A DNA stretch of 64,000 nt from Candidatus Proruminimicrobium quisquiliarum. Its GTDB lineage: Bacteria > Elusimicrobiota > Endomicrobiia > Endomicrobiales > Endomicrobiaceae. The notes under the pieces were generated by a model that was not told where the DNA came from, made no database searches, and saw nothing but the letters and a program-made list of their open reading frames with translations. A program made the position numbers and the translations under genes. Where the stretch lies: assembly GCA_018433245.1 (NCBI GenBank), contig JAHDRN010000023.1:1-64000 (forward strand). The letters run 5' to 3'. This document shows positions 6,702 through 32,741 of the stretch, piece by piece; the stretch's first letter is position 1, and each line of letters begins with the position of its first letter.

Positions 6702-7133
6702 ATGGATAAAATTAAAGTTCTTTTTGTATGCGTTCACAATTCTGCAAGAAGCCAGATGGCTGAAGCATTTTTGAAAAAACACGGCGGTGATAAATTTGAA
6801 GTTACAAGCGCAGGGATTGAACCGGGTACTCTTAATGCCATAGTCGTTGAAGTTATGAAAGAAATCGGGATAGATATTTCAAACAATAAAACGAAAAGCG
6901 TTTTTGATTTTTATAAAAACGGCAGTTTTTTTAATTATGTTATTACCGTCTGCGACGAATCCCAGTCTGAAACATGCCCAATTTTCCCGGGTGTCGTAAA
7001 ACAAATCCACTGGAGTTTTGCCGATCCGTCTTCTTTTAAAGATAATCTTGAAGAAAAGAAAGCGAAAACAAGAATAGTCAGAGACGAAATAGAGTCAAAA
7101 ATCAAACAATGGATAAAAGAAATAAATATATAA
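6702..7133 (+). CDS. arsC: Arsenate reductase, low-molecular-weight phosphatase type
   Basis: Reduces arsenate to arsenite using a phosphatase-like fold and, in this class, thioredoxin. The CX5R P-loop is CVHNSARSQ (about 10-18). The two further redox Cys are present in TVCDESQSETCPIF (about 82-95), which marks the thioredoxin-coupled class. The length of 143 aa is typical. No arsenite pump is next to it. The thioredoxin-like gene 2.3 kb downstream is broken, so the reductant must be encoded elsewhere. Confidence 0.88.
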   Translation: MDKIKVLFVCVHNSARSQMAEAFLKKHGGDKFEVTSAGIEPGTLNAIVVEVMKEIGIDISNNKTKSVFDFYKNGSFFNYVITVCDESQSETCPIFPGVVKQIHWSFADPSSFKDNLEEKKAKTRIVRDEIESKIKQWIKEINI

Positions 7134-7141
7134 TTTTTTAA

Positions 7142-7747
7142 TTAAAAAATTTCGGCAAGTTTCGCTGCTTTTTCAACAGCCGTATTAATAATTTGTTTTA
7201 TGTCGGCGCCCATTATATCAACGCCGTCTGCAAATATTGCACTATAGTTTACAACTCCTAAAAAATTTAGAATTGTTTTTATGTAGCGTTCGCCGAATTC
7301 AAAGTTTGACATCGGTTCAGTATCATATTTGCCGCCTCGGGCAGATACATACAGCGCACTTTTATTTTTTAATAATCCGACGGGTCCTTCGGCTGTATAT
7401 TTAAATGAAATATCTTTTACGGTTATATAATCAAAGTATGCTTTTAATATTGAAGGGACTCCCAGATTCCAAAGAGGCGCGGCAATGACGTATTTGTCGG
7501 CTTTGGCAAAAGTATAAGCATAAGAAAGCAGAGGATTGTTTTTACTGCTTTCATCTTTTGGTCCGAAAATTTGCTGTATTGATTCTATAGTCAAAAAATT
7601 AATGTTTTCTTTGTATAAGTCTAACGTTATTATTTTATCCTGAGGATTTTTTTTACTGTAGCTTTCAATAAATTTTTCTGAAATTTGGAACGTTCTGGAA
7701 AGTTCGTTTGGTTTCGGGTTTGCTTTTACATATAAAATAGTTTTCAT
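7142..7747 (-). CDS. azoR: FMN-dependent NADH-azoreductase
   Basis: Flavodoxin-fold quinone/azo reductase of the AzoR family, 201 aa. The N-terminal strand ILYVKANPKP and the P-x-WN motif APLWNLGVPS (about 89-98) bind FMN, and GGKYDTEPM plus the FGERYIK region are as in AzoR. It probably reduces quinones or nitro/azo compounds in the cytosol. The gene converges with arsC (9-nt gap). Its start has a gggagg ribosome-binding site, and a TTGACA-type -35 box is seen on the minus strand near 7797-7802. Confidence 0.85.
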   Translation of the reverse strand: MKTILYVKANPKPNELSRTFQISEKFIESYSKKNPQDKIITLDLYKENINFLTIESIQQIFGPKDESSKNNPLLSYAYTFAKADKYVIAAPLWNLGVPSILKAYFDYITVKDISFKYTAEGPVGLLKNKSALYVSARGGKYDTEPMSNFEFGERYIKTILNFLGVVNYSAIFADGVDIMGADIKQIINTAVEKAAKLAEIF

Positions 7748-7862: not shown

Positions 7863-9320
7863 ATGTCATTTGAGTTTTGGTTGTTTTTAATTTCGCTTCT
7901 AATATTTATAAGCGTTCTCTCAAGCAAGGTTTTAGACAGGTTTGCAGTTCCGGTTCTTCTTATTTTTTTGGGTATAGGGATACTTGCAGGTTCTGAAGGT
8001 ATCGGACGCATTTATTTTGATAATGCCGTGCTTGCCAAATCTATAGGAACAGTCGCTTTGATATTTATTATTTTTTCAGGCGGCCTTGATACCGACTGGA
8101 AAGAAACAAAACCTGTTATTTTACCGGGAATAATACTTTCAACTTTAGGCGTTTTGATTACAGCGCTCGTTACAGGATTTTTTGCCGTTTATATTTTAAA
8201 TTTTTCTATTCTTGAAGGAATGCTGCTCGGTTCTATTGTATCCTCAACAGATGCGGCCGCTGTTTTTACAACGTTAAGGTCAAGAAAAATAAGTCTTAAA
8301 AAACCGCTTAAACCTCTTCTTGAATTTGAATCGGGAAGCAACGATCCGATGGCTGTTTTTCTTACAATCGGCGTGATAAGCCTTATAACTGTTCAGGGGA
8401 CAAAATTTATTTCTCTTATCCCGAGTTTTATTATAGATATGGGGATGGGTTTGGCAGTCGGTTATATAATGGCAAAGTTCAGTTTATTTTTGATTAAAAG
8501 GCTTAATCTTGAATACGAAGGTCTTTATCCCGTTATAATGATTTCGCTTGTTCTTCTCACTTTTACAATTGCCGGTTTTGTAAAAGGAAACGGATTTTTA
8601 GCCGTTTACGTCGCAGGGCTTATGCTCGGCAAATTTGAATTTCAGAATAAAAGAATGATAAAAAAATTCCATGACGGAATAGCATGGCTTATGCAGATAG
8701 TCATGTTTGTTACGCTCGGTCTTTTGGTATTCCCGTCTCAGGTTCTTCCATATATATGGAAAGGACTTCTTATAACGGTTTTGCTTATGGTTGTAGCAAG
8801 ACCGGCCGGAGTTTTAATAAGCCTTCTTCCGTTTAAAATGAAATTTGCAAAAAAGATTATGATTTCATGGGTGGGATTGAGAGGCTCCGTTCCGATTATT
8901 CTTGCTACTTTTCCTCTGACAGCAGGAATAGATCAGGCGAACGTAATTTTTAATATCGTGTTTTTTGTAGTTGCAATTTCAGTATTTATACAGGGAACAT
9001 CAATACCGTTAGTTTCAAAACTTCTCGGGCTGGACGCTCCGATAGATAAAAAAATACATTATCCAATACAGTTTGAAAAAATGGACGGAATGGACGCGGA
9101 GCTTACAGATGTTCCCGTTCCTTATGAATCCCCGGCAGTAGGCAAAACAATAGCAGAACTGGGAGTGCCGAAAAAACTGCTTATAGTTTTAATTTCCCGT
9201 CAGGGCCAGTTTATCGTGCCGTCAGGTTCAACAGTCATAGAACAAGCCGATATATTGTTAGTCCTTGCCAACGATGAAGATATCACCGAACTCCAAAAAA
9301 TTATTTCTGCAATTAAATAG
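7863..9320 (+). CDS. nhaP2: K+/H+ antiporter NhaP2 with C-terminal RCK_C domain
   Basis: CPA1-family antiporter of 485 aa, expected to exchange potassium or sodium for protons across the inner membrane. About twelve hydrophobic segments fill residues 1-385. Signature residues include SSTDAAAVF (about 126-134) and the ESGSNDPMA pair (about 156-164). The tail (about 405-485) is a TrkA-C/RCK_C ligand-binding domain. Start ATG 7863 has an aaaaggaaa ribosome-binding site. The DNA encoding the last 70 residues is present again at 11263-11483 and 12974-13123, with a trace at 13277-13312. Confidence 0.9.
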   Translation: MSFEFWLFLISLLIFISVLSSKVLDRFAVPVLLIFLGIGILAGSEGIGRIYFDNAVLAKSIGTVALIFIIFSGGLDTDWKETKPVILPGIILSTLGVLITALVTGFFAVYILNFSILEGMLLGSIVSSTDAAAVFTTLRSRKISLKKPLKPLLEFESGSNDPMAVFLTIGVISLITVQGTKFISLIPSFIIDMGMGLAVGYIMAKFSLFLIKRLNLEYEGLYPVIMISLVLLTFTIAGFVKGNGFLAVYVAGLMLGKFEFQNKRMIKKFHDGIAWLMQIVMFVTLGLLVFPSQVLPYIWKGLLITVLLMVVARPAGVLISLLPFKMKFAKKIMISWVGLRGSVPIILATFPLTAGIDQANVIFNIVFFVVAISVFIQGTSIPLVSKLLGLDAPIDKKIHYPIQFEKMDGMDAELTDVPVPYESPAVGKTIAELGVPKKLLIVLISRQGQFIVPSGSTVIEQADILLVLANDEDITELQKIISAIK

Positions 9321-9449
9321 AAAACAACGATGATGTACAATTTTATAAAAGGCAAATAATTGATTTTATGTAAAATTTTATACCCAAAACAAAATTATCC
9401 AAACAACAATCATATCAGGTTCGTTTTGAAAATTCGGTAAATAAAATTT

Positions 9450-9694
9450 TCAATGCAACTTTTAATGATACAAATTTTAAAACTAAATGATACATCCGGT
9501 GCTTGGGCGCTTTGCGGAGAAATTTGCGAGTAAAGTAAAAGGGCAAAAGTTGATGTTTCGGTTCAAAAGCAAGCGAGTACGGCATAAGAAGCATGCCGAC
9601 GCTTATGATTTTTAATGATGGAAAAGTTGTTGAGACAATGTTGGGCTCCAACTCAAAAAGAAGAACTTAAATCGGCAGTTTTAAAATATTGACA
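9450..9694 (+). pseudogene. Thioredoxin, decayed
   Basis: Three frames together spell most of a thioredoxin. Near 9455 the N-terminal-like TFNDTNF is seen. Then EKFASKVKG and KVDVSVQKQA appear. After another shift comes YGIRSMPTLMIFNDGKVVE followed by TMLGSNSK, and after a last shift KEELKSAVLKY and a stop. The cis-Pro motif (SMPT) is present, but the WCGPC redox motif is absent and an in-frame TGA lies in that area. The gene has at least three lesions and is non-functional. It lies directly after nhaP2 at the left edge of the island. Confidence 0.75.
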
Positions 9695-9734
9695 AAAGAA
9701 AAACGGGACATATAATTATTGCGCTTGTAGGATA

Positions 9735-11144
9735 TTAATCTGATAATCCTTTATAAATTTTATCAATATCAATATTAAAATTTTTTAATATGCGGCTATG
9801 ATTAATAATCTCTTGAGGCAATACCATATCATTTAATGCTATTTTACAATTATAATCGGGTTTTAACATTATGGAATTCATAATTACAGATAATATAAGT
9901 ATATATTTATTTTTAGCCGAATATTTTATCTTAAATTCATTTATATCTATTAAATCGTGTGTTTGCATATAGTGCTTTATTTTTAAATTGTGATTATATA
10001 TTGTTTTTGCATATCCTATTGAAGATATAAATATAGATAATATCATTATTATATTAATAAATTTTATAAATTTATAATTTATATAAATGTTAAATTTAAG
10101 TACAAATATCAAAAAAATCATAAATAAAAAAGTTATATAGCAAGCAAGTATTCTGGCGTTAAATCCTGCCGAATAGGATGTTTTTGTTACAATAATTCCG
10201 ATTATAACTGCAAATAGAATTAAAAGTATTGTCATAAGAATGTTATTTTTTTTAAACATTGAGATTGTTAAAATTAAAATTACGGATAGTATAAGATATA
10301 GATTAAAATCTTGCAGAGATTCCAAGGAATAAAAATCAGGCATTGTTCCCACAGAATTGAAAGTATAAAACATATTAAAGATCCAGGCAATAAACAATAA
10401 AAACAAACTGCATACTAATATAATATTTTTTGATTCTGATAATTTTTTGATTCCTAAAAAAAACAAAATAGGAATGATAATAACAACGATAGGATGACTG
10501 CTTATTAAAAGAAAAGAAAATGATAATATTATTATTGAATCAAACAAAGATAATTTATTAAAGTTTTTGTATAAATAAAAATTAAATATTGCCCATGAAA
10601 ATAGTGCGGTTAAAATAGTTTCTGTCAACAGATAATATCGTAAATATACCATATATGTTAAAAAAGATAAGAGAATTATTTCAAAAGTTTCTTTTTTAGG
10701 GAGCAGCAAATATATTATAAGTAAAAATATTATCGGTGTGAAATGAAGAGAGAATGTAAAAATTTTCAATAAAACATTAACGTCATTTACAGAAAATAAA
10801 AAGTGTGGGATAGTAACCGATAAGTGAGGTAAGATATTTGTAAAATAACGGGAAATACAAGGAAAAGCTTCATAACAACCATTTTCAAAATATATTTGGT
10901 TATAAAATAATGCTGCGAATATTTTATCAACATCATTTTTAACAGTTCTAGGCGTAAAAGCCATTCGGGATGTTCCGATAAAAATATTATCGGTTTTTAG
11001 AGCGATTACAAAGCTTTCAATGGAATCTGTATCAGGATTTAATTCAACATACATAAGAGAGTTTAGTAAAGCAATTGCAAGAAATACTGAAACAGTAATA
11101 ATAATAGATGAATGCTTTCGGAAGATTAGGAATAAAGTTTTCAT
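9735..11144 (-). CDS. Polytopic membrane protein, unknown
   Basis: Protein of 469 aa with about ten to eleven hydrophobic helices and a short soluble C-terminus. A positively charged N-terminus precedes the first helix, and the first outer loop contains an NPDTDS acidic motif. That position resembles the DxD of GT-C glycosyltransferases, but the similarity is too weak for a call. The codon usage is more AT-rich than in the surrounding core genes. It is flanked by the nhaP2 gene and a partial nhaP2 3'-end copy, suggesting an inserted cargo gene. Confidence 0.6.
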   Translation of the reverse strand: MKTLFLIFRKHSSIIITVSVFLAIALLNSLMYVELNPDTDSIESFVIALKTDNIFIGTSRMAFTPRTVKNDVDKIFAALFYNQIYFENGCYEAFPCISRYFTNILPHLSVTIPHFLFSVNDVNVLLKIFTFSLHFTPIIFLLIIYLLLPKKETFEIILLSFLTYMVYLRYYLLTETILTALFSWAIFNFYLYKNFNKLSLFDSIIILSFSFLLISSHPIVVIIIPILFFLGIKKLSESKNIILVCSLFLLFIAWIFNMFYTFNSVGTMPDFYSLESLQDFNLYLILSVILILTISMFKKNNILMTILLILFAVIIGIIVTKTSYSAGFNARILACYITFLFMIFLIFVLKFNIYINYKFIKFINIIMILSIFISSIGYAKTIYNHNLKIKHYMQTHDLIDINEFKIKYSAKNKYILILSVIMNSIMLKPDYNCKIALNDMVLPQEIINHSRILKNFNIDIDKIYKGLSD

Positions 11145-11262
11145 AAATGCAATATCACGGATAGTAAATTTTTGTTATTATACTGAAAAAATTATATTAT
11201 TACAAATATTGATATGTTACTGAACAATTAGGCTGGTGTTGATTGTTTAAGGGCGTAACTCG

Positions 11263-11483
11263 CAGACATTCCCGTTCCTTACGAATCCCCGGCAGTAGGC
11301 AAAACAATAGCAGAACTGGGAGTGCCGGAAAAACTGCTTATAGCCTTAATTTCCCGTAAGGGCCAGTTTATAGTCCCGTCCGGCTCAACGGTCATAGAAC
11401 AAGCCGATATATTGTTAGTCCTTGCCAACGATGAAGATATCGGTATTTTACAAAATATAATTTTCACATCTAAAAAAATATAA
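11263..11483 (+). pseudogene. Second copy of the nhaP2 3' end (RCK_C)
   Basis: The frame beginning in ADIPVPYESPAVGKT matches the last 70 residues of the antiporter (9105-9320) and remains open to TAA 11481-11483. The first 185 nt differ from nhaP2 at roughly a dozen positions, mostly synonymous, with a few replacements (V to I, K to E, V to A, Q to K). After 'NDEDI' the tail is different (GILQNIIFTSKKI). A TAA lies just upstream in frame and no start codon is present, so it is a truncated gene end. Confidence 0.85.
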
Positions 11484-11559
11484 CAGAAAATAAAATACAA
11501 TATCAATAAAAATATATTTTCATTGTTTTTTTTGACAGATATAATAAATAATTTATGAT

Positions 11560-12899
11560 TTAATCAGTTAAAGATAGAATGGACTTTCCTATATTGATTG
11601 CTATCAGCTCATTTCCCTTATCAGTACAATGTCCAAAGATTCCTGCAAAACTATCGTTAAATAAATCATAATATGACGTATTCTTTAATTCTTTTTCAAA
11701 ATTTGTTTGGTTTTGAATAAATATTATTTTTTCTCGCAAGTCAGAGTTCTTAAAAATATTTTTTAATTGAGATATTGGGATTCTCGGATATCCCATACAA
11801 AAATAAGTTATGTTGTGTTCTTCAAGTTTTTCTGCAAAATTTAAGTATATTTTCTGCACATATTCATTTTGAAAAGATATTACTGGTATGTATTTTTTAG
11901 GTTTGTTTTTAACAGGTATATTATGTCTTTGACAGTATTGATATACTGTGCTGACAGCTTCTGCAGAACAATTATAACTTAATAATAAATCATAAAACAA
12001 AATGAGCTTATCATCAGGAGAATTTATAAAACCACCTGATATTTGATTTATAAAGTTATTTTTTTCAAATTTTGTTATGTTATTGTTTGATAAGATATTT
12101 GAAATAAGATTGAGAGCCTCAGAATATTTTTCTTGATGAATATAAGTATAACAAATAGAACTTGCAATTATCATAAATTTATGTGATAAAACATGTTCTA
12201 AATTTGAATAAATCTTAAAATATTTTTCTGTGTTTGCAAAATCATTTCTGTCGTTATATAATATAATCAAATTTGCGAGTATCATTAGATTGTCCGGCTC
12301 TTTTTTCAATAAATCTAGTAGTTTTTTAGGAGGTTTTTTAAAATCAGAGTAATATTCTTCAGCAATTTTTTTGAATTTTACAAAACCATCAAAGTCATAA
12401 TGATTAAAAATAGGTTCTTTAAACATAATATGTAATTTTAACAATTCTAATAATTCAATTGTTTTAAGTTGATGTTTTATATATGTGAGATTGCCTCTTG
12501 GTATATCATTAATCCCCATCATGGAAATTATGATATCAGGATTATATTTTTTTAATTGCATGTCTAGATTTTTGAGTATTAAATCAAGATTTGTTGCGGG
12601 AATACCACAATCTACGACTTGATAATTTACGGATGATTTGTTTCTATTAAGATACATCTGTAATTGAATCGGCCATTGTTTATAGGTTGTTGATTCTCCA
12701 ATACAAAGAATTGTTAATGTGTTTTTGTTTTTTTTGAAATTAGCATTGGCAATTTGCGATTCTAAAGATTTATTTTGCGCAGATATAACAATTTTTGTTA
12801 TAAAAGAAGCTGTTTGTAAAACAAATTCTAATAAAAAAATGAAAAAATAAAGCCTAAAAAAATAAGCAAGATCTTTTTTAATAAATATTCATATTTCAT
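11560..12899 (-). pseudogene. SGNH/GDSL hydrolase-like protein, frameshifted
   Basis: The minus-strand ATG at 12897-12899 starts MKYEYLLKKILLIFLGFIF, a signal-anchor like those of the proteins at 31387 and 32742. The frame breaks at a seven-A run (12833-12839 on the plus strand). One nucleotide off, it continues as LLEFVLQTASF, then the GEST nucleophile motif (LCIGESTTY), VDCGIP and MMGIND blocks, and a C-terminal IFGH. The paralogues have DFGH there, so the Asp of the DxxH catalytic motif is lost. An open frame of 365 aa from 12657 lacks the anchor and the nucleophile Ser. It is a pseudogene or a switchable gene. Confidence 0.75.
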
Positions 12900-12973
12900 T
12901 AAAGTAATTATACTTTTTTTAAGGACAAACAAAAAATATTAAAAAAAAAGATAGAGAGGTTTGGAGTACATAC

Positions 12974-13123
12974 AAACTGCTTATAGTCTTAATTTCCCGT
13001 CAGGGCCAGTTTATAGTGCCGTCCGGCTCAACAGTCATAGAACAAGCCGATATATTGTTAGTCCTTGCCAACGATGAAGATATTCTCGCTCTCCAAAAAC
13101 TCATCTCCACTCAAAAGATTTAG
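12974..13123 (+). pseudogene. Third copy of the nhaP2 3' end
   Basis: From KLLIVLISRQG onward it matches the nhaP2 tail. In the first 110 nt I count four differences, all synonymous. The frame is open to TAG 13121-13123, and the last dozen residues again differ (LALQKLISTQKI). There is no start codon and no upstream part of the gene. Confidence 0.85.
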
Positions 13124-13151
13124 AAATAGAAATTAAAATTTTATAAGAGCA

Positions 13152-13275
13152 ATTTTATGCAGTATTTTTATTTTAGACGAGGCGACAAAATGCGGACTGT
13201 CGGGCGGATTTGCAAAGCAAACCGAAGAGTATACTGTGAACGAGCGGAGCCGAAAGTCCCCAAGCATCCAAACTC
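13152..13275 (+). repeat. Dispersed mosaic repeat, partial copy
   Basis: Begins with the shared 'ttttatgcagtatttttatt' block and 'agacgaggcgacaaaatgcg'. It then carries a hairpin block (gggcggaTTTGC-aaa-GCAAAccgaaga, 13203-13228), the 'gtatactgtgaac' block and a 'gcggagccgaaag' block. It sits between two nhaP2 tail copies. The hairpin block recurs at about 22901-22934 and 50279-50303. Confidence 0.75.
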
Positions 13276-13276
13276 A

Positions 13277-13312
13277 GCGCACCCAAAAAACTGCTTATAG
13301 TTTTGATTTTTT
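13277..13312 (+). repeat. Short fourth trace of the nhaP2 3' end
   Basis: The bases 'aaaaaactgcttatagtttt' here match nhaP2 codons for KKLLIVL at about 9170-9190. The match ends after about 30 bp. It lies directly after the mosaic repeat. Being short, it might be chance, but the neighbouring copies make common origin likely. Confidence 0.6.
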
Positions 13313-13371
13313 GCTAAAAAACTTAAAAATTAATCATTGCAAAAATACATGTTATCTGTGGGCTGTTTTTT

Positions 13372-14649
13372 TTAGATATTATTAGTATTTTCAATAACTG
13401 TATTGGCTATGGCTGCTTTTATCTGATTTGTGTAAAGACCACCCCTTAAGTTAAATACTTTTGTTTTTTTATCTATATTGTGTATTGCCCGCCAAGAAAC
13501 TGAATGTGATACGTAATCTATTGCCACAAACAGGAAATCGATTTGCTTGACTTTTGACAAATTAAAATGCGTATCGCCTGCCTGAATTAGAGTTATATTT
13601 TTTATATTTGACAAATGTGAAAAAATAGGCATTTCTATATTAAATCCTACAACCGCTATCTTGAAATTTAATGCTATATCCTGTAAATTTTTTTTTGGGT
13701 TCTTTGTATAAAAATTTTCATTTATTTGTAATTTTTCAATATCAAATTTATTTATTTTGCCTTTTAAATCATTATTTTCTTGGGAAAGTTTCTTATTTTT
13801 TATTTCCAGTTCAAAAATTCGTTTATTTCTTTTTTCTATTTCGTAATGTGTAGAATATTTTTTAATTGTTTCCTCAAGAGTCTGGATTTTTAAATTTAAT
13901 TTATCGATTTGGTCGTCTTGTTCTATTATATGTTCATAAGGCTGTATATATTTTTCTATATTATTAATATACGGTAAAATATCCGTAAAAGATTCTATTT
14001 CTATGATGTTTTTAATATTTTTTAAATCTTTATGGGGATTTATGCAAAAACTTAAAGGTGCAATTTTTGCTATTTCAATATCATTTTTATCATCGCCGAC
14101 AAAAACCCAGTCCGTTTTTATATTTAATTTTAAGTTTTTTAAATTGATTTTTAAAAAATCAATTTTCCCTTTGAAATCAGAAGGGTGTAATTCATGCAAT
14201 TTATCGAGATATCCGTTTTGATCAAATATATATTCGCAGGCACCATACCCCATGCTGATATCAAGATGTTCTTCTGCTTTATGTATAAGATTTTGAAACC
14301 CGCCTGATATTAGCACCGTGGCCCATTTTTCCCTGTCTAAATTTTCAAAGAAATTTTCAACGCCCTTATTGTAAACGGTATTATCTATTACTGAGTCAAA
14401 TTGTTCTTTCTTAAGGCCGTATTTTTTATGCATGCGATAAGAAGCTTTGACCCATTCGGTATAATTTTCAAATTCTCCGTTCTGCCACTTTTTATGATTT
14501 TCTTTTTCTTCTGCTATCGCATTTTCGCCAAGTATTTTTGCCAGTGATTGCCAACAATTGGAAGAGATATCAGTGCCTTCAATTTTATTCGGAATAAAAA
14601 GAGTTCCGTCAACGCCGCAAACAAAAAGTTTTTTTTTGAATTTAGGCAT
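13372..14649 (-). CDS. HAD-like / coiled-coil / DUF2325-like fusion protein
   Basis: Protein of 425 aa in three parts. Residues 1-225 resemble a phosphoserine-phosphatase-type HAD domain, with motif II in VLISGGF and motif IV as VFVGDDKNDIE. Residues about 240-305 are a charged coiled coil. Residues about 320-425 resemble DUF2325, with the characteristic VAIDYVSHSV segment. The HAD nucleophile is absent: motif I reads GVDGT instead of DxDGT (residues 12-16), so phosphatase activity is doubtful. It lies 19 nt downstream of the YdjM-like gene on the same strand, forming a two-gene cassette bounded by mosaic repeats. The function is unknown. Confidence 0.7.
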   Translation of the reverse strand: MPKFKKKLFVCGVDGTLFIPNKIEGTDISSNCWQSLAKILGENAIAEEKENHKKWQNGEFENYTEWVKASYRMHKKYGLKKEQFDSVIDNTVYNKGVENFFENLDREKWATVLISGGFQNLIHKAEEHLDISMGYGACEYIFDQNGYLDKLHELHPSDFKGKIDFLKINLKNLKLNIKTDWVFVGDDKNDIEIAKIAPLSFCINPHKDLKNIKNIIEIESFTDILPYINNIEKYIQPYEHIIEQDDQIDKLNLKIQTLEETIKKYSTHYEIEKRNKRIFELEIKNKKLSQENNDLKGKINKFDIEKLQINENFYTKNPKKNLQDIALNFKIAVVGFNIEMPIFSHLSNIKNITLIQAGDTHFNLSKVKQIDFLFVAIDYVSHSVSWRAIHNIDKKTKVFNLRGGLYTNQIKAAIANTVIENTNNI

Positions 14650-15433: not shown

Positions 15434-15543
15434 TGCTCCACCAACGGTTAAATTCTAATATATCGATAAAGTTATATTATATTTTTTTGCTCTTCTTTAC
15501 AATATATTTCTGTAATTTCTATTTTTTTTAATTAGACAAGAGA

Positions 15544-15828
15544 CACCCGAACGACGCAGTATAAACAAAAAAGCCGATCCCGCAAATTGCTTTGCGTACC
15601 GGCAATGTTATTATAATAATTTTAATATAAATATGCTAGGGTGTGAAATAAATATAAAACACAGCAATTTTATGCGGTATTTTTATTTTAGATGAGGCGA
15701 CAAAATGCGAGTGTATACTGTGAACAGCGGAGTGGTATGATGCGTTATTTTTTACTATGGATTTTAAGATGATTTTTAATTTTCTTTTGGACGAGGTATA
15801 CCTAGCAGAGCCGAGCGGTAGCGAGAAG
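15544..15828 (+). repeat. Dispersed mosaic repeat, long copy
   Basis: Contains, in order: a block shared with 23034-23072 (acccgaacgacgcagtataa...aagccga), a hairpin block (CGCAAA-ttgc-TTTGCG, 15581-15596) with its 'accggcaatg' flank shared with about 22760-22830, and the 'tatgcggtatttttatttta' to 'gccgagcggtagcgagaag' block shared with 17326-17488. The last block is nearly identical between the two copies over about 150 bp. Confidence 0.85.
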
Positions 15829-15882: not shown

Positions 15883-17271
15883 TTATTTTTTGACAAATTT
15901 TGTTATTATATAAATTAGATACACTATTAATAAAAATCCTGCAAAGAAGTCTATTGTTTGCCATGTATCACGGTGAAAATGCAACTGTATTATTGGATTA
16001 AATAAGACTGCTGTTGCCAGCAATAAATAAAAGAAAATATTTTTTTTAATAAATTCTAAATAGATAATATAACAGCTTGTTGTTGTTACAGTTATTCTTA
16101 GTAATGTATAAAAGCCTGCTGAAAACTTACCATCACTAGCAATAGCCAAAAACAAAAATAATAAAGATGAAGAAATTAATATTAACAAATTTTTATGTTC
16201 TTTTAAAAAAGTTTTTAATAATGTTAATGATATAAATATTTTATATGCGGATGTTTTTATCATTGTAATTATAAATAGAATTAAAAGTATTGATAATATA
16301 CTGAAATCGATTAGATCTGCTTTGTTTTGTTTAATAAAATTTTTAATTTTAAAACTTAGCTTTTTGTTCTCTTGTTGAATAATTTTAATTTCTAGATCAT
16401 TAAGTTGTTTTAATGTTTTTTGAATATAGCCTATTTCTTGTAGTGTTGGCTCATCTTCACTTAAGTTTAATTTATGTTCTAGTAATTGTTTTTTGCAAAA
16501 TTTTAATCTAGTCCTTAGAGATTGTAAATTTTGTTGATTTGAATTTTTTAATTTTATAAGTATATTTAGATATTTATCAATGCTATCCAATCTTAAAATT
16601 AATTTATTTTTTTTAAATTCAATTTCTTGCAATTGTTTATTATCATTGAGAGTATCAGGTATCGTTATATCTTCCAATTCTGCGGGCATTGCATTTTTTG
16701 TTTGTTGAATATTATCGGCAAAAAATCCAAGTTTATTAAATTTTATATAGATTTGAGATATTAATTTTTTAGCATCTCTATCATCGTCCGGGAAAACAGT
16801 ATCATCAAAATTTATTTCATTTTTGTCAGCATCAATTATTCTTTCAAGTTTTTCTCCTGTGAGGGCAATATCAGCATCATCATCGTTTGGAAAAACAATA
16901 CCGTCAAAATTATATTTTTTAGTAGGTTGAGCCGTTATAGTATTATGTTCATTTATCTTATAATCATTTGGTGCAACAGTGTTGTCAGAAAGTAGTTTTT
17001 CTTTGTTTGTATCTTTGTTTACTTCTTGTATGAGTTGTTGTTTAAAATAATTGCGGACTTGTTGTTTTATTTTATTTTTTTGTATTTGCAATAATCCTAA
17101 GGACAACATAACAAGCACAAAAATAAAAAGTACTTTTATGATTTTTGGTATTTTGTTCAAATCTTCGGTGTTGGTTTTTTGTTTTATATCATTAAAAGGT
17201 TGTTTGCAGTTTGTGCAAAACGAATTTATATCATTATTTTTTGTATTGCAATTTTTACAAATTTTCATCAA
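15883..17271 (-). CDS. Zinc-ribbon membrane protein, unknown
   Basis: Protein of 462 aa. A zinc ribbon at the N-terminus has CxxC pairs at 5/8 and 19/22 (CKNC and CTNC). One membrane helix follows (about 42-62). A soluble part contains two related acidic motifs, FDGIVFPNDDDADI and FDDTVFPDDDRDA. Then come a long coiled coil (about 210-310) and four to five C-terminal membrane helices. No family beyond the zinc ribbon is recognised. The gene is AT-rich and lies alone between two nearly identical mosaic repeats. The second Met (17268) is equally plausible as start. Confidence 0.65.
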   Translation of the reverse strand: MMKICKNCNTKNNDINSFCTNCKQPFNDIKQKTNTEDLNKIPKIIKVLFIFVLVMLSLGLLQIQKNKIKQQVRNYFKQQLIQEVNKDTNKEKLLSDNTVAPNDYKINEHNTITAQPTKKYNFDGIVFPNDDDADIALTGEKLERIIDADKNEINFDDTVFPDDDRDAKKLISQIYIKFNKLGFFADNIQQTKNAMPAELEDITIPDTLNDNKQLQEIEFKKNKLILRLDSIDKYLNILIKLKNSNQQNLQSLRTRLKFCKKQLLEHKLNLSEDEPTLQEIGYIQKTLKQLNDLEIKIIQQENKKLSFKIKNFIKQNKADLIDFSILSILLILFIITMIKTSAYKIFISLTLLKTFLKEHKNLLILISSSLLFLFLAIASDGKFSAGFYTLLRITVTTTSCYIIYLEFIKKNIFFYLLLATAVLFNPIIQLHFHRDTWQTIDFFAGFLLIVYLIYIITKFVKK

Positions 17272-17325: not shown

Positions 17326-17548
17326 TTTTATGCAGTATTTTTATTTTAGACGAGGCGGCAAAATGCGAGAGTATACTGTGAACAGCGGAGTGGTATGATG
17401 CGTTATTTTTTACTATGGATTTTAAGATGATTTTTGATTTTCTTTTGGACGAGGTATACCTAGCACAGCCGAGCGGTAGCGAGAAGGGTATCCGAAGTTC
17501 AAAAAAAATCAAAAAGGGCTTAAAAGCCGAAGTAAAAAAACTCCGAGA
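17326..17548 (+). repeat. Dispersed mosaic repeat with tRNA-Gln 3'-end block
   Basis: The first 160 bp nearly repeat 15668-15828. After a short spacer it ends in 'aaaagccgaagtaaaaaaa' followed by 'ctccgaga' (17522-17548). This last block recurs at 23063-23090, where ctccgaga is the 3' end of the tRNA-Gln gene. Confidence 0.85.
17522..17548 (-). repeat. Attachment-site-like direct repeat of tRNA-Gln end
   Basis: This 27-bp segment matches 23063-23090 with a single-A length difference. It includes 8 bp of the tRNA acceptor end plus 19-20 bp of downstream flank. It brackets the 5.5-kb segment holding the five-gene exported-protein operon. No integrase gene is visible between the copies. Confidence 0.6.
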
Positions 17549-17821: not shown

Positions 17822-18955
17822 TTGCATAGAGGCCTCGTGTTTTCTTTGGAAAATTTTGGAGTAAAAAACTTCTTTGTTTTTGTGTTAATGGTATTTTCTG
17901 CATCGGCATTATTTGCATCTCAAGATGTTAAATATGCCGGTTTTGCTTTTGTAGGGGATTTTGGAGATATAGCAACCCGCTTTAAATATACAAATATTTT
18001 GAATTCAAATAAAGATGAAGATGGCCGGTCAATTTTTGATAAAGAAGTTCAAATTTTTTTTCAAGATAATGCTTCCTTAATGCAAGGGATTAATCTAACA
18101 ATTGGAGAAGATTCTAACACCAAAATTGCTATGGCATTAGCAATAACACGCGAAAATATTAGCATAGTGAATATAGATGATTTTTATAAAGTAGTTGTTA
18201 ATTTATCGTGCAACTTGACATTTCTCAATTTTGACGGAATGAAAGTGGTTGCGACATATCCTATTTATCTTGAGTATATAGACGTGAGAAAAACTTTGCC
18301 GGATGAAGAGTATAAAACAAAGTTAATAGAGCAATTGTTTTTTTCTGAAGATTTTAGTGTTTTGCAAACTTTGAAGGGTCGAATGCAAAATATAACATTG
18401 AAAAATGACGCTTTTCTGAATATGAAAGTATTGAATGTTATTGTTGAAGATGAGGCCAAGTTAAACCTGCAAGAATATCAAGATAACCTTAGTATGTTTG
18501 AGAGTATTATTGCCCAGCGTTTTGCCGATACGTTATCTAATAGGTTAAATATTTCATTTCTTCCGTATTCAAAGGATTATTTAGGCGGTAAAATGTCTTT
18601 GGTTTTTTCAGATGCCAAAGTTCAAGATTTTCAGATTCCGGATGCGAGTTATGGTATAGATTTAATCATACGTAAATTAGTAAAAAATCTTTATAAAGAA
18701 GGGATAGGAGAAGATGCTTTTCTATATGGCATATATATAACAGTAAAAGTTTATGATCCGGAGCTTAATAGAATTTATTGGGATGAGAAAATTAAATTTG
18801 GTGCTGTAAAAAATATTCCAAAATTACAAAAAACATTTGATGATTTTGCTGTTTTTGATGAAATGACAGGAATCATTATGGTAGAAGCAACAAAAAAGAT
18901 TAAAGAGGATAAAAAATTTTATACGGAGGTAATTACGCGATGTTTAAACAAGTAA
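17822..18955 (+). CDS. Exported protein, first gene of FlgT/CsgG-like operon
   Basis: Protein of 377 aa or slightly less. The hydrophobic stretch FFVFVLMVFSASALFAS looks like a signal peptide cleaved before QDVKYAG. The mature part is mixed alpha/beta with no membrane helix, and I do not recognise its family. The start is uncertain: TTG 17822, GTG 17837 (after agagg) and TTG 17846 are all in frame ahead of the signal sequence, and no ATG lies upstream of it. The gene ends 16 nt inside the next one, so translation is coupled. It is probably a periplasmic or outer-membrane-associated partner of the downstream proteins. Confidence 0.7.
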   Translation: MHRGLVFSLENFGVKNFFVFVLMVFSASALFASQDVKYAGFAFVGDFGDIATRFKYTNILNSNKDEDGRSIFDKEVQIFFQDNASLMQGINLTIGEDSNTKIAMALAITRENISIVNIDDFYKVVVNLSCNLTFLNFDGMKVVATYPIYLEYIDVRKTLPDEEYKTKLIEQLFFSEDFSVLQTLKGRMQNITLKNDAFLNMKVLNVIVEDEAKLNLQEYQDNLSMFESIIAQRFADTLSNRLNISFLPYSKDYLGGKMSLVFSDAKVQDFQIPDASYGIDLIIRKLVKNLYKEGIGEDAFLYGIYITVKVYDPELNRIYWDEKIKFGAVKNIPKLQKTFDDFAVFDEMTGIIMVEATKKIKEDKKFYTEVITRCLNK

Positions 18956-19998
18956 CATTTTTAATATGTGGCATTATATTAGCAACAATGGTTGGTACTG
19001 TACAAGCTGAATATAAAAAAATTAAAGTTTTAGGTCAAGTTGAAACAAAAATAACCAAAACAGCAACTACTAATCAGAAAAAACGTGCTCTTGAAGATGC
19101 TCGCACGAAAGCTCTTAATAAATATATTGCCGGGCTTGATTCTCAGAGAGTCAGAATTTTAAATAATATTATAGATCAACTCAAAAATAATATTACAGTT
19201 TATGTACCTGATGTTGTTGCTCTTGATGATGGCAGCTGGAGTAATGGATATTGGACTATAGGGGTTGAAGCATCTATAAATGAGGCACAAATTGAGGAAA
19301 TAATAAATCAGAACATTCAATCAGCAAGTAAGAAAAAAGGTGAAGAAATTTATTTGTCTTTTGTTTTTGTTGCGCGTGAAACTGATAGCGTAAGAAAATT
19401 TGAAGATAAAAAAACAGAAATAACTTCTGAATCTGAGGCAGTCAATATATCTGAATCTGAAGATGGATTATCCGGACAAAACGAAAGAGTAATGGAAAAA
19501 ACTTCAGGCGGTTCAACAGAAAAAAAAGCCGACAAGTTTTCGTATAGAAGTTATATTCCTGAAGATATAGGAAGTAAAGTTTCAGAAGTTTTTAATAAAG
19601 CTGAATATTCCGTTGTCGAACCTTTTGAAGCAAATATTGATACTAAAAGTTTTATTTCTGATTTTGTTGAAGGAGATGAAATTTCAGATGTTACAAAAAA
19701 AACTGCTACTTCAGCTGCAAGGTCAGCCGGTTTAAATTATCTTGCAGTTGCCACATTAGATGTTGGCGAACAGATGGTTGACCAAGCAACAGGTATGAAA
19801 AAAGTTTATGTTAGGGTAAATGGATATATTTGGGATCTTGAAGGCAAATTTGTAAGAAAGGTGTGCAGTGTTGGCCCTGTTCAGTACAGTGGTCTTGGCG
19901 AAGATTTTAAGGTGGCAAAAACAAATGCTTTAATAAATGCTGCTTCGTCCGCAGCTAAAGATCTTGTTGATCAATTAAGGCTTAAACAAAGCAGGTAA
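18940..19998 (+). CDS. FlgT-N/LPP20-like exported protein
   Basis: Protein of 352 aa with a signal peptide cleaved after VQA (about residue 23). Residues about 25-140 have the pattern of FlgT N-terminal/LPP20-type domains: 'KIKVLGQVE', then a helix with ALEDARTKALNKYI, then a strand 'GYWTIGVEASINEAQI'. A Ser/Glu-rich low-complexity linker (about 155-190) leads to a second domain with DALIN-like helices (KTNALINAASSAAKDLV). Such domains occur in proteins that assemble on the outer membrane. The start has a ggagg ribosome-binding site and overlaps the preceding stop. The family call is by pattern only. Confidence 0.6.
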   Translation: MFKQVTFLICGIILATMVGTVQAEYKKIKVLGQVETKITKTATTNQKKRALEDARTKALNKYIAGLDSQRVRILNNIIDQLKNNITVYVPDVVALDDGSWSNGYWTIGVEASINEAQIEEIINQNIQSASKKKGEEIYLSFVFVARETDSVRKFEDKKTEITSESEAVNISESEDGLSGQNERVMEKTSGGSTEKKADKFSYRSYIPEDIGSKVSEVFNKAEYSVVEPFEANIDTKSFISDFVEGDEISDVTKKTATSAARSAGLNYLAVATLDVGEQMVDQATGMKKVYVRVNGYIWDLEGKFVRKVCSVGPVQYSGLGEDFKVAKTNALINAASSAAKDLVDQLRLKQSR

Positions 19999-20708: not shown

Positions 20709-21713
20709 ATGTTTAAAAAAAAACTGTTGCTTATAACTGTTCTTTTTTGTTTTCTTTTTACCGGTAGGGCTTATACTGAAAATAGTTTGAGTGTTACTGG
20801 TCAAAAAGATATACCGCTGGCTATTGCAATATTTACAAATAATAACACTAACAATCCAAATTATGATAAATATGGGGATATGCTCTGTTCTGCAATAGCT
20901 AGTCAAATAACCGGGAAATTTACAGTTATAAATAAAAATGATGTTATAAATGTTTTTAGACAAGAGAATATCAAAAGCAGTTTCAAAATATCAAATTTTA
21001 GGGATTATTTGCAATTGCTTTCTGTATTAAAACAAGAAGAAAATAAATCAAATAAAGAAGATGCTGTTGATAAAAAAACAATTGAACAAAAGGCTTCTGC
21101 TTTGAGAATTTCTCAAGCAATAGGGGCCAAATATTTGCTTATTGCTGATATAGAAGACATAGTTGTTAATAATATTACAGATACAGTTTATAACAATCAA
21201 ATTAATGATTTAAAAATAACAGCCGACATTGCCGTTAAAATTCTAAATGGTGTAAATGCTGGAACAATTTTAGCAGAGAATATTCGTGTTCAAAAGAGAG
21301 TTCATGGGAATCAACAAAGTAATTTTACATTCGCAGATATTGAACAATCTTTACCAATTCTCATTAATCAAGCCTCTAAAGATATTTCCGTAAAAATTCT
21401 AGACAATATTGACACTGTCAAAACTTCAAAAGCTGATATAGAAAGTGTTAGATTTAATGTAAAAACTAATGTTTCTGATGCAACAGTTGAATTAGACGGA
21501 ATTCTTATAGAAACTGTAGACGGAGAATTTTTTGCAATGCCAGGCTTACATAGATTAAGAGTTACAAGAGATGGATACCGCACTTTTGAAAGAGATATTA
21601 ATGTAATAGCCAATGCGGAGTTTATAGTAAATTTAAAAGAAATCGAAAAGCCACTAGATATACAAGAACAAAATACAAAATTAGAATCAAAAGTAAGCGA
21701 AAAACAAAAGTAA
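20709..21713 (+). CDS. CsgG/TolB-N-like exported protein with PEGA domain
   Basis: Protein of 334 aa with an N-terminal signal sequence ending near TGRAYTE. Residues about 35-200 follow the CsgG/TolB N-terminal scheme: a strand IPLAIAIFTN, a helix GDMLCSAIASQI, FTVINKNDV, and a helix ALRISQAIGAKYLLIADIE. Residues about 245-315 resemble a PEGA domain (VSDATVELDGI, then GLHRLRVTRDGYRTFERDI). PEGA-type domains are associated with cell-surface proteins. It follows the previous gene by 5 nt without a strong ribosome-binding site, so translation is probably coupled. Confidence 0.65.
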   Translation: MFKKKLLLITVLFCFLFTGRAYTENSLSVTGQKDIPLAIAIFTNNNTNNPNYDKYGDMLCSAIASQITGKFTVINKNDVINVFRQENIKSSFKISNFRDYLQLLSVLKQEENKSNKEDAVDKKTIEQKASALRISQAIGAKYLLIADIEDIVVNNITDTVYNNQINDLKITADIAVKILNGVNAGTILAENIRVQKRVHGNQQSNFTFADIEQSLPILINQASKDISVKILDNIDTVKTSKADIESVRFNVKTNVSDATVELDGILIETVDGEFFAMPGLHRLRVTRDGYRTFERDINVIANAEFIVNLKEIEKPLDIQEQNTKLESKVSEKQK

Positions 21714-21775
21714 TTTTAACTTAATGATAGTTTATGTAAGACTGTAGTTTATGATTGATAAAGAGGTATATTAAT

Positions 21776-22693
21776 ATGCATAGGTTAAAGTTTTTATTTT
21801 TTGTATGTATAGCTTATTTTTGTGTTATATCAACAACATATGCAGAGAAGATAAAAATAGGTTTTATTGAAGAAATAGATACATCTGTAGATGTTCCGAG
21901 CGTAATTCAACAAAATCTCAAAGAAAGTATTAGGCATGCTTTGGTAAACTCGGGAAAATTTGATGTGTTTGATAGAAATCAAAAAGATCTTAGCCGTCTT
22001 TTTGAAGAAATGAAGTTTTCAGATGAACGACTCGGCCAAGTTGATATAAATGATTCTAAAAAAGCAGAATTTGGCAAAATATCCGGCATAGAATATATTG
22101 TTCTTTTAGGGATTAATGATTTTCTTGTTGGCCAAGAGAAATCTAAATTTCAAAAACCTCTTGCTGATGAGAAAAGTTTTATTCGGTTAGGAGTTAGTTT
22201 AAGACTGCTCAATTCATCTACCGGTAAAATTCAACTAGAGAAAAATATAATTGAAAAACAATATTCTTTAATAAAATTAACAAATGAAGAATTTGATATA
22301 GTATTGTCAAATAAAACAATAAATCTATTAACAAGAAAAATCACCCGTCAAATTATTGAAGAATTGTATCCGATTTTAATACTTGAAAAAACAGGTACTA
22401 GTGCTTTTATTAATTGTGGAAAAGATGCAGGTATTGTAGTTGGCGAAGAATTTGAAGTTTATGCTACAAAAAATGTCCTAGATGATGGAACTCTTAATAA
22501 TCTTGCAATTGAAAAATCAGTTGGAAAAGTAAAAGTGATTCGAATATCTCCCAAAACTTCGGAAGTTGAGATTATAGAAGATTTTGGTATAGATAAAGGA
22601 TGTATAATCAGATCTCAAGACAATGAAAATCAACCTGTGAAAAAAAATATCTCAGAAAACATTCAAAAGAAAAAGAATACTGACGATTGGTAA
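21776..22693 (+). CDS. CsgG-like exported protein with FlgT-C-like tail
   Basis: Start ATG 21776 follows aaagagg; an upstream in-frame TTG at 21755 is unlikely. The product of about 305 aa begins with a signal peptide cleaved near TYA (about residue 20). The mature N-terminal part has IKIGFIEE, KFDVFDRNQKDL and KISGIEYIVLLGI, matching the CsgG scheme. The C-terminal part (about 205-285) has INCGKDAGIVVGEEFEVY and GKVKVIRISPKTSEVEI, like FlgT C-terminal domains. It ends in a Lys-rich tail. It is the last gene of the operon. Confidence 0.65.
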   Translation: MHRLKFLFFVCIAYFCVISTTYAEKIKIGFIEEIDTSVDVPSVIQQNLKESIRHALVNSGKFDVFDRNQKDLSRLFEEMKFSDERLGQVDINDSKKAEFGKISGIEYIVLLGINDFLVGQEKSKFQKPLADEKSFIRLGVSLRLLNSSTGKIQLEKNIIEKQYSLIKLTNEEFDIVLSNKTINLLTRKITRQIIEELYPILILEKTGTSAFINCGKDAGIVVGEEFEVYATKNVLDDGTLNNLAIEKSVGKVKVIRISPKTSEVEIIEDFGIDKGCIIRSQDNENQPVKKNISENIQKKKNTDDW

Positions 22694-22756
22694 GAGAATA
22701 ATTGCATTTTATCAAAATCAAAAAACCCGAAACACATATAAAGTTTGAAAATATAT

Positions 22757-23082
22757 CCAACAAATTGCTTTGCGTACCGGCAATGATATTATAATAATTT
22801 TAATATAAATATGCTATGGAGTGAAATATAGAGAACAACAATTTAATGCGAGAGAAAAATGTTTTGCCTTGCGATTTTTACGAAGGATTTTAGGCTGTTT
22901 GGCGGATTTATCAATTCTATTGATAAACCGAAGATGATTTTCTTTTGGACGACAAATTTTTACAAGTATTTTTTGGTTAGACGAGAAGTGAGGATGTGAG
23001 CGTGTACTGTGAACAGGCGGAGCCGGAGGTACCCGAACATCCGAACGACGCAGTATAAACAAAAAAGCCGAAGTAAAAAAAA
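22757..23082 (+). repeat. Dispersed mosaic repeat, composite copy
   Basis: Shares a 'caaattgctttgcgtaccgg' block with 15583-15602 and its AT-rich continuation. It then has a hairpin block with enlarged stem (TTTATCAAT-tct-ATTGATAAA, 22907-22927) flanked by the same ggcgga/ccgaaga as at 13203-13228. Next come a 'tgtactgtgaacaggcggagccg' block and the 'acccgaac...gacgcagtataaac' block shared with 15544-15577. It abuts the tRNA-Gln 3' end. No coding region is seen between 22694 and 23082. Confidence 0.8.
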
Positions 23083-23153
23083 CTCCGAGACTAGGATTCG
23101 AACCTAGACAAAGAGATCCAAATTCTCTTGTGCTGCCATTACACCATCTCGGA
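23083..23153 (-). tRNA. tRNA-Gln (anticodon UUG)
   Basis: The minus strand folds as a cloverleaf. A 7-bp acceptor stem is formed by tccgaga/tctcgga, with discriminator G. A D-arm and an anticodon stem agaga/tctct follow, with loop ATTTGGA giving anticodon TTG. The T-arm is tctagGTTCGAATcctag-like. CCA is not encoded. The gene lies between the island and spoVG and is probably co-transcribed with spoVG. Confidence 0.93.
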
Positions 23154-32733: not shown

Positions 32734-32741
32734 TTCGATAA

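What the first reader, a model, noticed from the sequence alone, without database searches (positions are those of the whole stretch)
9105..13312. Array of diverged nhaP2 3'-end copies with cargo genes between them
The coding end of the antiporter (RCK_C domain) recurs at 11263-11483 and 12974-13123, with a short trace at 13277-13312, always in the same orientation. Differences in the shared part are mostly synonymous (all four in the first 110 nt of the third copy), the frames are open to distinct stops, and each copy has its own last dozen residues. Two readings are possible. A tandem array of paralogues may have been eroded by insertions. Or the 3' end may act as a recombination site that gives the antiporter alternative regulatory tails, while accumulating cargo genes on the opposite strand.
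Basis: partly seen in the sequence, partly recalled or inferred. Interest (0 to 1): 0.8.

Follow-up and report, generated by a model that had tools for sequence, protein, structure and literature searches.

The report
Displaced antiporter gene ends between cargo
Downstream of an ordinary sodium/proton antiporter gene in an Endomicrobia-type bacterium lie cut-off copies of the gene's own end, each with a different last dozen codons and with low-GC genes between them; the pattern looks like repeated recombination with related foreign DNA, as known for bacterial Rhs toxin genes, rather than a working tail-switching device.

Summary
The antiporter (7863-9320) is followed by 5'-truncated, same-orientation copies of its RCK_C end at 11263-11483 and 12974-13123, and by a trace at 13268-13309 most like another genus's version. 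A further copy lies on contig C31, also beside an SGNH/GDSL-type gene. The copies are mosaics: the shared part is 92-95% identical and ends in an exact 50-56 nt run; the last 35 coding bases are only 49-54% identical. Copy 3's end groups with the C31 copy and relative G020; copy 2's end leans, weakly, to same-genus G001. The antiporter and its flavodoxin neighbour look foreign (antiporter 89% to another genus, 76% within the genus), while LMWPc and PolA do not. Best explanation: related foreign DNA entered repeatedly by recombination anchored in the gene's conserved 3' end, each time giving a new end, adding a low-GC passenger gene and pushing the old end downstream, as in Rhs "C-terminal displacement". 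Functional tail switching is not supported: ends are short homologous stretches, the copies keep only internal start codons, and 75 other family genomes gave no fragments. No donor arrangement was found, so order and mechanism are inferred. New variant of a known kind.

The parts
7863..9320 (+).
   Evidence: Pfam Na_H_Exchanger 8.2e-50 and TrkA_C 3.9e-17; 89% aa identical to G011 and G020, 76% to same-genus G001
9106..9284 (+). Shared part of the tail in the intact gene; its last 51-56 nt are an exact run shared with copy 2 (9234-9284) and copy 3 (9228-9283)
9285..9320 (+). Variable 3' end of the intact gene
   Evidence: 19/35 identical to each of copies 2 and 3
9485..9691 (+). Decayed 3' part of a thioredoxin gene (frame broken)
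   Evidence: 73% nt to the thioredoxin-like gene at L006 8845-9058; score 591 against a maximum of 342 in 300 shuffles
9735..11144 (-). Cargo 1: 469-aa integral-membrane-type protein, GC 22-25%
   Evidence: No Pfam or NCBIfam family; relatives at 27-40% aa in 4 of 76 family genomes, own genome included, at E <= 1e-8
11263..11483 (+). Copy 2: 5'-truncated antiporter tail; own 3' end leaning to that of G001
   Evidence: 93% over 11263-11441; end 24/35 to G001
11560..12657 (-). Cargo 2: SGNH/GDSL-like protein; homology continues to about 12894 with a frame break near the N-terminus
   Evidence: Paralogue relation; GDSL match below cut-off, its window paralogue 31387-32733 just over it; frame break
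12974..13123 (+). Copy 3: 5'-truncated antiporter tail; 3' end like the C31 copy and G020
   Evidence: 91%; end 28/35 to G020, 27/35 to C31
13131..13194 (+). Dispersed repeat directly after copy 3, also directly after the C31 copy
13268..13309 (+). Trace of a further antiporter tail, like G011's version
   Evidence: 87.5% over 40 nt to L110; 0 of 1000 shuffles
6702..7133 (+). LMWPc-family gene, native-like; in G001 it directly precedes the antiporter
   Evidence: Pfam LMWPc; 84% to G001, 62% to G011; layout
7142..7747 (-). Flavodoxin-fold gene, adjacent to the antiporter in G011 too
   Evidence: Pfam Flavodoxin_2; 80% to G011; layout

Best explanation
The region is a displacement array. DNA from related bacteria entered several times by homologous recombination anchored in the conserved 3' part of the antiporter gene, either as a circle by a single crossover or as a linear piece joined illegitimately at its other end. 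Each entry gave the gene (or the tail then in front) a new last dozen codons and a low-GC passenger gene, and pushed the older, 5'-truncated tail with its older end downstream. Shown: truncated direct copies, mosaic break, foreign-like antiporter body, low-GC passengers, a second locus (C31) with the same kinds of neighbours. Inferred: the order of events, circular or linear DNA, and that tail and passenger arrived together. No function of the downstream tails is needed; what the passengers do is unknown, and a cell-envelope role is a guess from the membrane and SGNH-like character.
For: Ragged 5' starts (gene positions 9106 and 9174, and a trace that starts near 9154) but one common break after an exact 50-56 nt run ending at 9283/9284. 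Shared part 92-95% identical, ends 49-54% (Fisher p 2e-7, 2e-7 and 7e-9). The drop exceeds what the fast-evolving end explains if its rate ratio is the largest of three orthologue pairs (3.33): P 0.0015, 6e-5, 3e-6. Sites siding with the other source against the intact gene flip at the break: copy 3 with C31, 1:7 then 9:1 (p 0.003); with G020, 2:9 then 10:1 (p 0.002); copy 2 with G001, 3:27 then 8:3 (p 0.0002). Foreign-like body: antiporter 89% to g11 and 76% to G001, flavodoxin 80% to G011, against PolA 76% G001 and 67-69% g11, LMWPc 84% G001 and 62% G011. Excess of synonymous differences (p 0.016 and 0.0009), so the copies diverged mostly while in working genes. GC 22-25% in the cargo genes against about 37% at 8001-9000. 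The C31 copy sits about 30 nt after an SGNH remnant, with an intact SGNH gene and a thioredoxin gene within about 2.3 kb, and is followed by the same repeat as copy 3. Rhs arrays show a similar anatomy (PMC2935791, passages).
Against: No genome seen carries a donor arrangement (intact antiporter followed by the same end and passenger): G011, G020 and G001 have other genes there (the last two on contigs of 5-6 kb). The affinity of copy 2's end to G001 is weak when tested alone (8 against 3 sites, p 0.23). Break position and nearest relatives were chosen after seeing the alignment; the four other copy-relative pairings (copy 2 with G020 and G011, copy 3 with G001 and G011) show no significant preference for the relative over the intact gene in the end. 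With an assumed end/shared rate ratio of 6, intact vs copy 2 is no longer exceptional (P 0.12). Low GC is not confined to the array: 16001-16500 has 21% and 21001-23000 has 28-30%. Whether passenger paralogues elsewhere sit beside gene stubs was not tested; the frame maps (110 codons or more) could not show stubs. The trace has no end, and copy 3's upstream junction is undefined.
Confidence: 0.6

Rival explanations
1. Tandem or dispersed antiporter paralogues decayed to 3' stubs by deletion and insertion of other genes, and the stubs were later homogenised by gene conversion from the intact gene up to the point where the ends are too different.
For: The region is decayed: broken thioredoxin stub, frame-broken SGNH gene. 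Conversion also predicts an exact run ending at the break.
Against: Needs several full-length antiporters of different ancestry; of the 9 of 76 family genomes with a tail, the 8 others show one tail each. Needs conversion in addition.
Confidence: 0.2
2. Assembly or strain-mixing artefact: tails of different strains were joined at the 50-56 nt exact run.
For: The break lies exactly at the end of an exact shared run; the genome is in 35 contigs. Read type and coverage are unknown to me.
Against: 50-56 nt is shorter than ordinary reads (recalled); the flanks differ and are kilobases long; the C31 locus repeats the same kinds of neighbours on another contig; contamination is listed as 0.4.
Confidence: 0.08
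3. Site-specific integration of mobile elements into the antiporter 3' end, as phages do at icd or tRNA genes (recalled).
For: Same orientation, 3'-end target, cargo between the copies.
Against: Neither of the two long frames between the tails matches a recombinase family in Pfam or NCBIfam (the genome as a whole was not searched for recombinases). The copies start at different places and are alike on the 5' side of the break, not on the 3' side. No match in plasmid or phage records. No unusual hairpin.
Confidence: 0.05
4. A selected tail-exchange system in which downstream copies serve as silent donors of alternative antiporter C-termini.
For: Downstream copies differ from the expressed gene just where tails would vary.
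Against: Ends are short homologous stretches; no fragments found in relatives; copy 2 has four amino-acid-changing codons in the shared part.
Confidence: 0.04

Closest known systems
Rhs C-terminal displacement arrays (Jackson et al. 2009, PMC2935791; passages read)
   Same: Intact gene followed by fragments with partial cores of varying length, cores nearly identical to the local gene, distinct ends, and a low-GC trough of several kb.
   Different: Rhs tips are variable domains not homologous to each other (toxins with immunity genes, recalled and in listings). Here the ends are about 12 residues of homologous sequence, the gene is an ion antiporter, and passengers are on the opposite strand.
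Vibrio cholerae T6SS effector-immunity arrays by sequential displacement (Kirchberger et al. 2017, PMC5361080; passages read)
   Same: Proposed one-sided homology anchor plus illegitimate joining; older pieces shifted downstream; alleles from different strains in one array.
   Different: Retained pieces there are immunity genes with a proposed benefit; here the retained pieces are gene stubs.
Homology-facilitated illegitimate recombination (PMC3240628, abstract and outline read)
   Same: Insertion of foreign DNA anchored by homology on one side.
   Different: The illegitimate junction cannot be seen here without the donor.
Neisseria pilE/pilS silent cassettes (recalled, no call)
   Same: 5'-truncated silent copies of an expressed gene.
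   Different: No hypervariable expressed region and no evidence of donation back to the gene.

Membership tests
Rhs/CDI C-terminal displacement array | Partial-core fragments of varying length downstream, same strand | tested here: met
Rhs/CDI C-terminal displacement array | Core of fragments nearly identical to the local gene, ends distinct | tested here: met
   92-95% against 49-54%
Rhs/CDI C-terminal displacement array | Low-GC stretch downstream of the core gene | tested here: met
   22-25% in the cargo against about 37% at 8001-9000; other low-GC stretches exist in the window
Rhs/CDI C-terminal displacement array | Tips non-homologous toxin domains with immunity genes | tested here: not met
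   Ends are alignable, 11-13 residues; no Pfam or NCBIfam toxin or immunity family in cargo 1 and 2 (PADLOC and PHROGs not searched)
Rhs/CDI C-terminal displacement array | Same ends seen attached to the gene in other strains | tested here: inconclusive
   copy 3 end 28/35 to G020, copy 2 end 24/35 to G001
Homology-facilitated illegitimate recombination | Homologous junction on one side, illegitimate junction on the other | not testable with these tools
   No donor or empty-site sequence found
Site-specific integration into a gene 3' end | Recombinase gene in the insert | tested here: not met
   Two long frames between the tails, no recombinase match in Pfam or NCBIfam
Site-specific integration into a gene 3' end | Duplicated stretch starts at one fixed core | tested here: not met
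   Starts at gene positions 9106, 9174 and about 9154
Integron cassette array | attC-like folded recombination site | tested here: not met
   Tail and break region only: fold z-scores -0.46, -0.53, 1.58; integron integrase not searched
Silent-cassette antigenic variation (pilS type) | Expressed gene varies between cells or strains by donation from silent copies | not testable with these tools
   One genome held per species; two in the genus
CPA-type antiporter with RCK_C | Exchanger domain plus C-terminal TrkA_C | tested here: met

The most novel reading that the evidence does not exclude
In Endomicrobia the conserved 3' end of an ordinary transporter gene acts as an integrase-free landing pad: small modules made of a gene end plus a passenger gene (perhaps for the cell envelope) circulate between species and stack up behind the gene by Rhs-like displacement, so that displacement arrays are a general outcome of homologous recombination and not a speciality of toxin genes.
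Probability: 0.13. Interest if true: 0.7.

Novelty: new variant of a known kind. Interest (0 to 1): 0.42.

Why it matters
Arrays of displaced gene ends are mostly discussed for toxin and immunity genes. If the same anatomy arises behind a housekeeping-type antiporter, the mechanism is a general by-product of recombination with related DNA, and such stubs become a readable record of past gene transfer at a locus.

Tried and rejected
Functional alternative tails: rejected for lack of novelty in the ends and absence of fragments in the relatives searched. Mobile-element origin: no match in 72,556 plasmid and 50,697 phage records with 9096-13320. attC-like hairpin at the break: none. Right-flank synteny: protein 18940-19995 found no match in six genomes, which without a positive control shows nothing. 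ComEC-family gene present, but the same family rings in 10 of 14 control genomes, so it says little about competence. Promoter and terminator scan of 9000-13500: 45 promoter-like sites against 30.7 (sd 6.2) in shuffles, 2 terminator-like against 1.6; not used. Structure models of cargo 1 and cargo 2 had mean pLDDT 44.5 and 55.1; they were not used and no fold search was run. Paper searches for a non-toxin case: 'C-terminal displacement' gave 68 papers, 25 of them seen as titles and abstract starts; others (15 of 42 listed; 1 of 1; 10 of 90; 8 of 4,340; 2 of 2; none) showed no such case in what was listed. This is no proof that none is in print.
Full report
What is there. The window lies in a 1.94 Mb genome of 35 contigs. 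Its nearest named relatives by the antiporter are an Endomicrobiaceae MAG and Candidatus Praeruminimicrobium purgamenti, both 89%; the contig lengths 5050 and 123608 show that these are G020 and G011. Gene 7863-9320 is a Na+/H+ antiporter with an RCK_C domain. Downstream, in direct orientation, lie 5'-truncated copies of its end: copy 2 (11263-11483), copy 3 (12974-13123) and a trace (13268-13309). Between them, on the opposite strand, are a 469-aa membrane-type protein without any Pfam or NCBIfam match and an SGNH/GDSL-like protein whose N-terminal part is out of frame. Behind the intact gene is a broken 3' part of a thioredoxin gene (9485-9691). The cargo genes have a GC of 22-25%, against about 37% at 8001-9000; low-GC stretches also occur elsewhere in the window.

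A second place. The genome search found one more tail, on contig C31 (44996-45087, 85%). It follows, by about 30 nt, a remnant of an SGNH gene on the same strand. An intact SGNH gene and a thioredoxin gene lie within about 2.3 kb, and the tail is followed by the same dispersed repeat that follows copy 3. Both places that hold tail stubs thus also hold an SGNH gene and a thioredoxin 3' end. The search for SGNH relatives gave 12 match rows: besides these two places, they lie at 31-34 kb of the window, on C6, on C21 and at another place on C31.

The copies are mosaics. In the alignment the intact gene and copies 2 and 3 are 92-95% identical over columns 87-198, but only 49-54% over the next 35 columns (Fisher p 7e-9 to 2e-7). 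The end also drifts fast between orthologues: G020-G011 falls from 80% to 51%. So the raw drop is not enough. With the largest rate ratio among the three orthologue pairs (3.33) the observed end differences have P 0.0015, 6e-5 and 3e-6; with a ratio of 6 they have P 0.12, 0.016 and 0.002. A second test asks with whom each copy sides at informative sites on the two sides of the break: copy 3 with C31, 1:7 then 9:1; with G020, 2:9 then 10:1 (columns 131-198 against 199-233); copy 2 with G001, 3:27 then 8:3 (columns 87-198 against 199-233) (Fisher p 0.003, 0.002, 0.0002). Break and relatives were picked after seeing the alignment. One search ran seven copy-relative pairings on slightly different columns; three were carried into. 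The four others gave no significant preference for the relative in the end (copy 2 with G020 5:4, with G011 0:4; copy 3 with G001 4:6, with G011 3:3). Alone, copy 2's end does not prefer G001 significantly (8:3, p 0.23). The exact shared run is 50-56 nt and ends at 9283/9284 in the pairs with the intact gene, a length that would suit a homologous anchor (minimal lengths for recombination recalled, no call).

Foreign-like body. PolA is closest to the same-genus genome G001 (76%; g11 genomes 67-69%), and LMWPc just upstream agrees (84% G001, 62% G011). The antiporter reverses this (89% g11, 76% G001), and the flavodoxin gene between LMWPc and the antiporter is 80% identical to G011's and sits beside the antiporter there. 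In G001 the LMWPc gene directly precedes the antiporter. The simplest reading is that a g11-like flavodoxin-antiporter segment replaced or overlaid the native antiporter, and that copy 2's end may be the native one. The last point is a suggestion only. The baseline rests on two genes.

Timing. Intact vs copy 3 differ at five sites in 37 codons, all synonymous (p 0.0009); intact vs copy 2 at 12 sites in 59 codons, 7 synonymous (p 0.016). Stubs that had drifted freely since duplication would show mostly amino-acid changes. The differences therefore mostly arose in working genes, before the copies were brought together. Copy 2's four amino-acid-changing codons allow some later drift.

Distribution. 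Of 76 family genomes (31 of them at least 90% complete and at most 5% contaminated), 9 hold the tail at E <= 0.001, and only the window's genome holds fragments. Of 80 antiporter loci from named genomes, 77 gave a tail hit by protein search and none gave two; a DNA self-search of the 77 gave one extra match, an 18-nt inverted one in L050. The same two searches find copies 2 and 3 in the window. Ten of the 80 loci are shorter than 10 kb. In about 145 kb of held own-genome sequence a self-comparison listed paralogues and short dispersed repeats besides the antiporter and thioredoxin stubs; I did not examine each of those matches, and the stretches were chosen around related genes, not at random.

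Mechanism. Jackson et al. proposed for rhs genes that a circle carrying a partial core, a tip and intervening genes recombines by a single crossover with the core and shunts the old tip downstream (passages read). Kirchberger et al. proposed a one-sided homology anchor with illegitimate joining for T6SS arrays (passages read). Either reproduces the features seen here: ragged 5' starts, a common break, distinct ends, same orientation, passengers between. I cannot tell circle from linear DNA. Gene conversion among decayed tandem copies remains the main rival (0.2). An assembly artefact is less likely, but only long reads exclude it. A published survey of Endomicrobiaceae (PMC11257099) names competence and transformation among the functions in which free-living and endosymbiotic lineages did not notably differ (passage read); a ComEC-family gene is present here, but the family is widespread.

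Verdict. Observation confirmed; the recombination-site idea is supported as history, and the alternative-tail idea is not supported. It works like an Rhs-type displacement array without being one: the toxin-tip feature was tested and not met.

Noticed in passing
15668-15828 and 17326-17486: 161-nt direct repeats (96% identical) flank the DUF6804 gene 15883-17271; shorter relatives lie at 13148-13194, inverted at 357-464 and on C31. The genes further downstream are thus also separated by direct repeats.
   Followed up: partly
G000:C25:78663-78817: Part of the repeat after copy 3 recurs here four times, in part at spacings of 31 nt or multiples.
   Followed up: no
15543-15676: Pieces of the stretch beside the tRNA-Gln gene (22755-22850 and 23037-23071) recur here at 86% and 97%.
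   Followed up: no
31387-34073: Two tandem SGNH/GDSL-like genes of 448 and 443 aa, paralogues of cargo 2, members of a family with matches on four contigs.
   Followed up: partly
22957-23106: 87% identical to L006 6676-6826 on C31, next to a tRNA-Asn-like sequence as I read it: related sequence lies beside two tRNA genes.
   Followed up: no
9689-9716 and 11532-11559: On the + strand, a 12-of-12 and an 11-of-12 sigma-70-type promoter match lie after the thioredoxin stub and after copy 2, each pointing into the 3' end of the cargo gene; chance matches are common in this AT-rich DNA.
   Followed up: no
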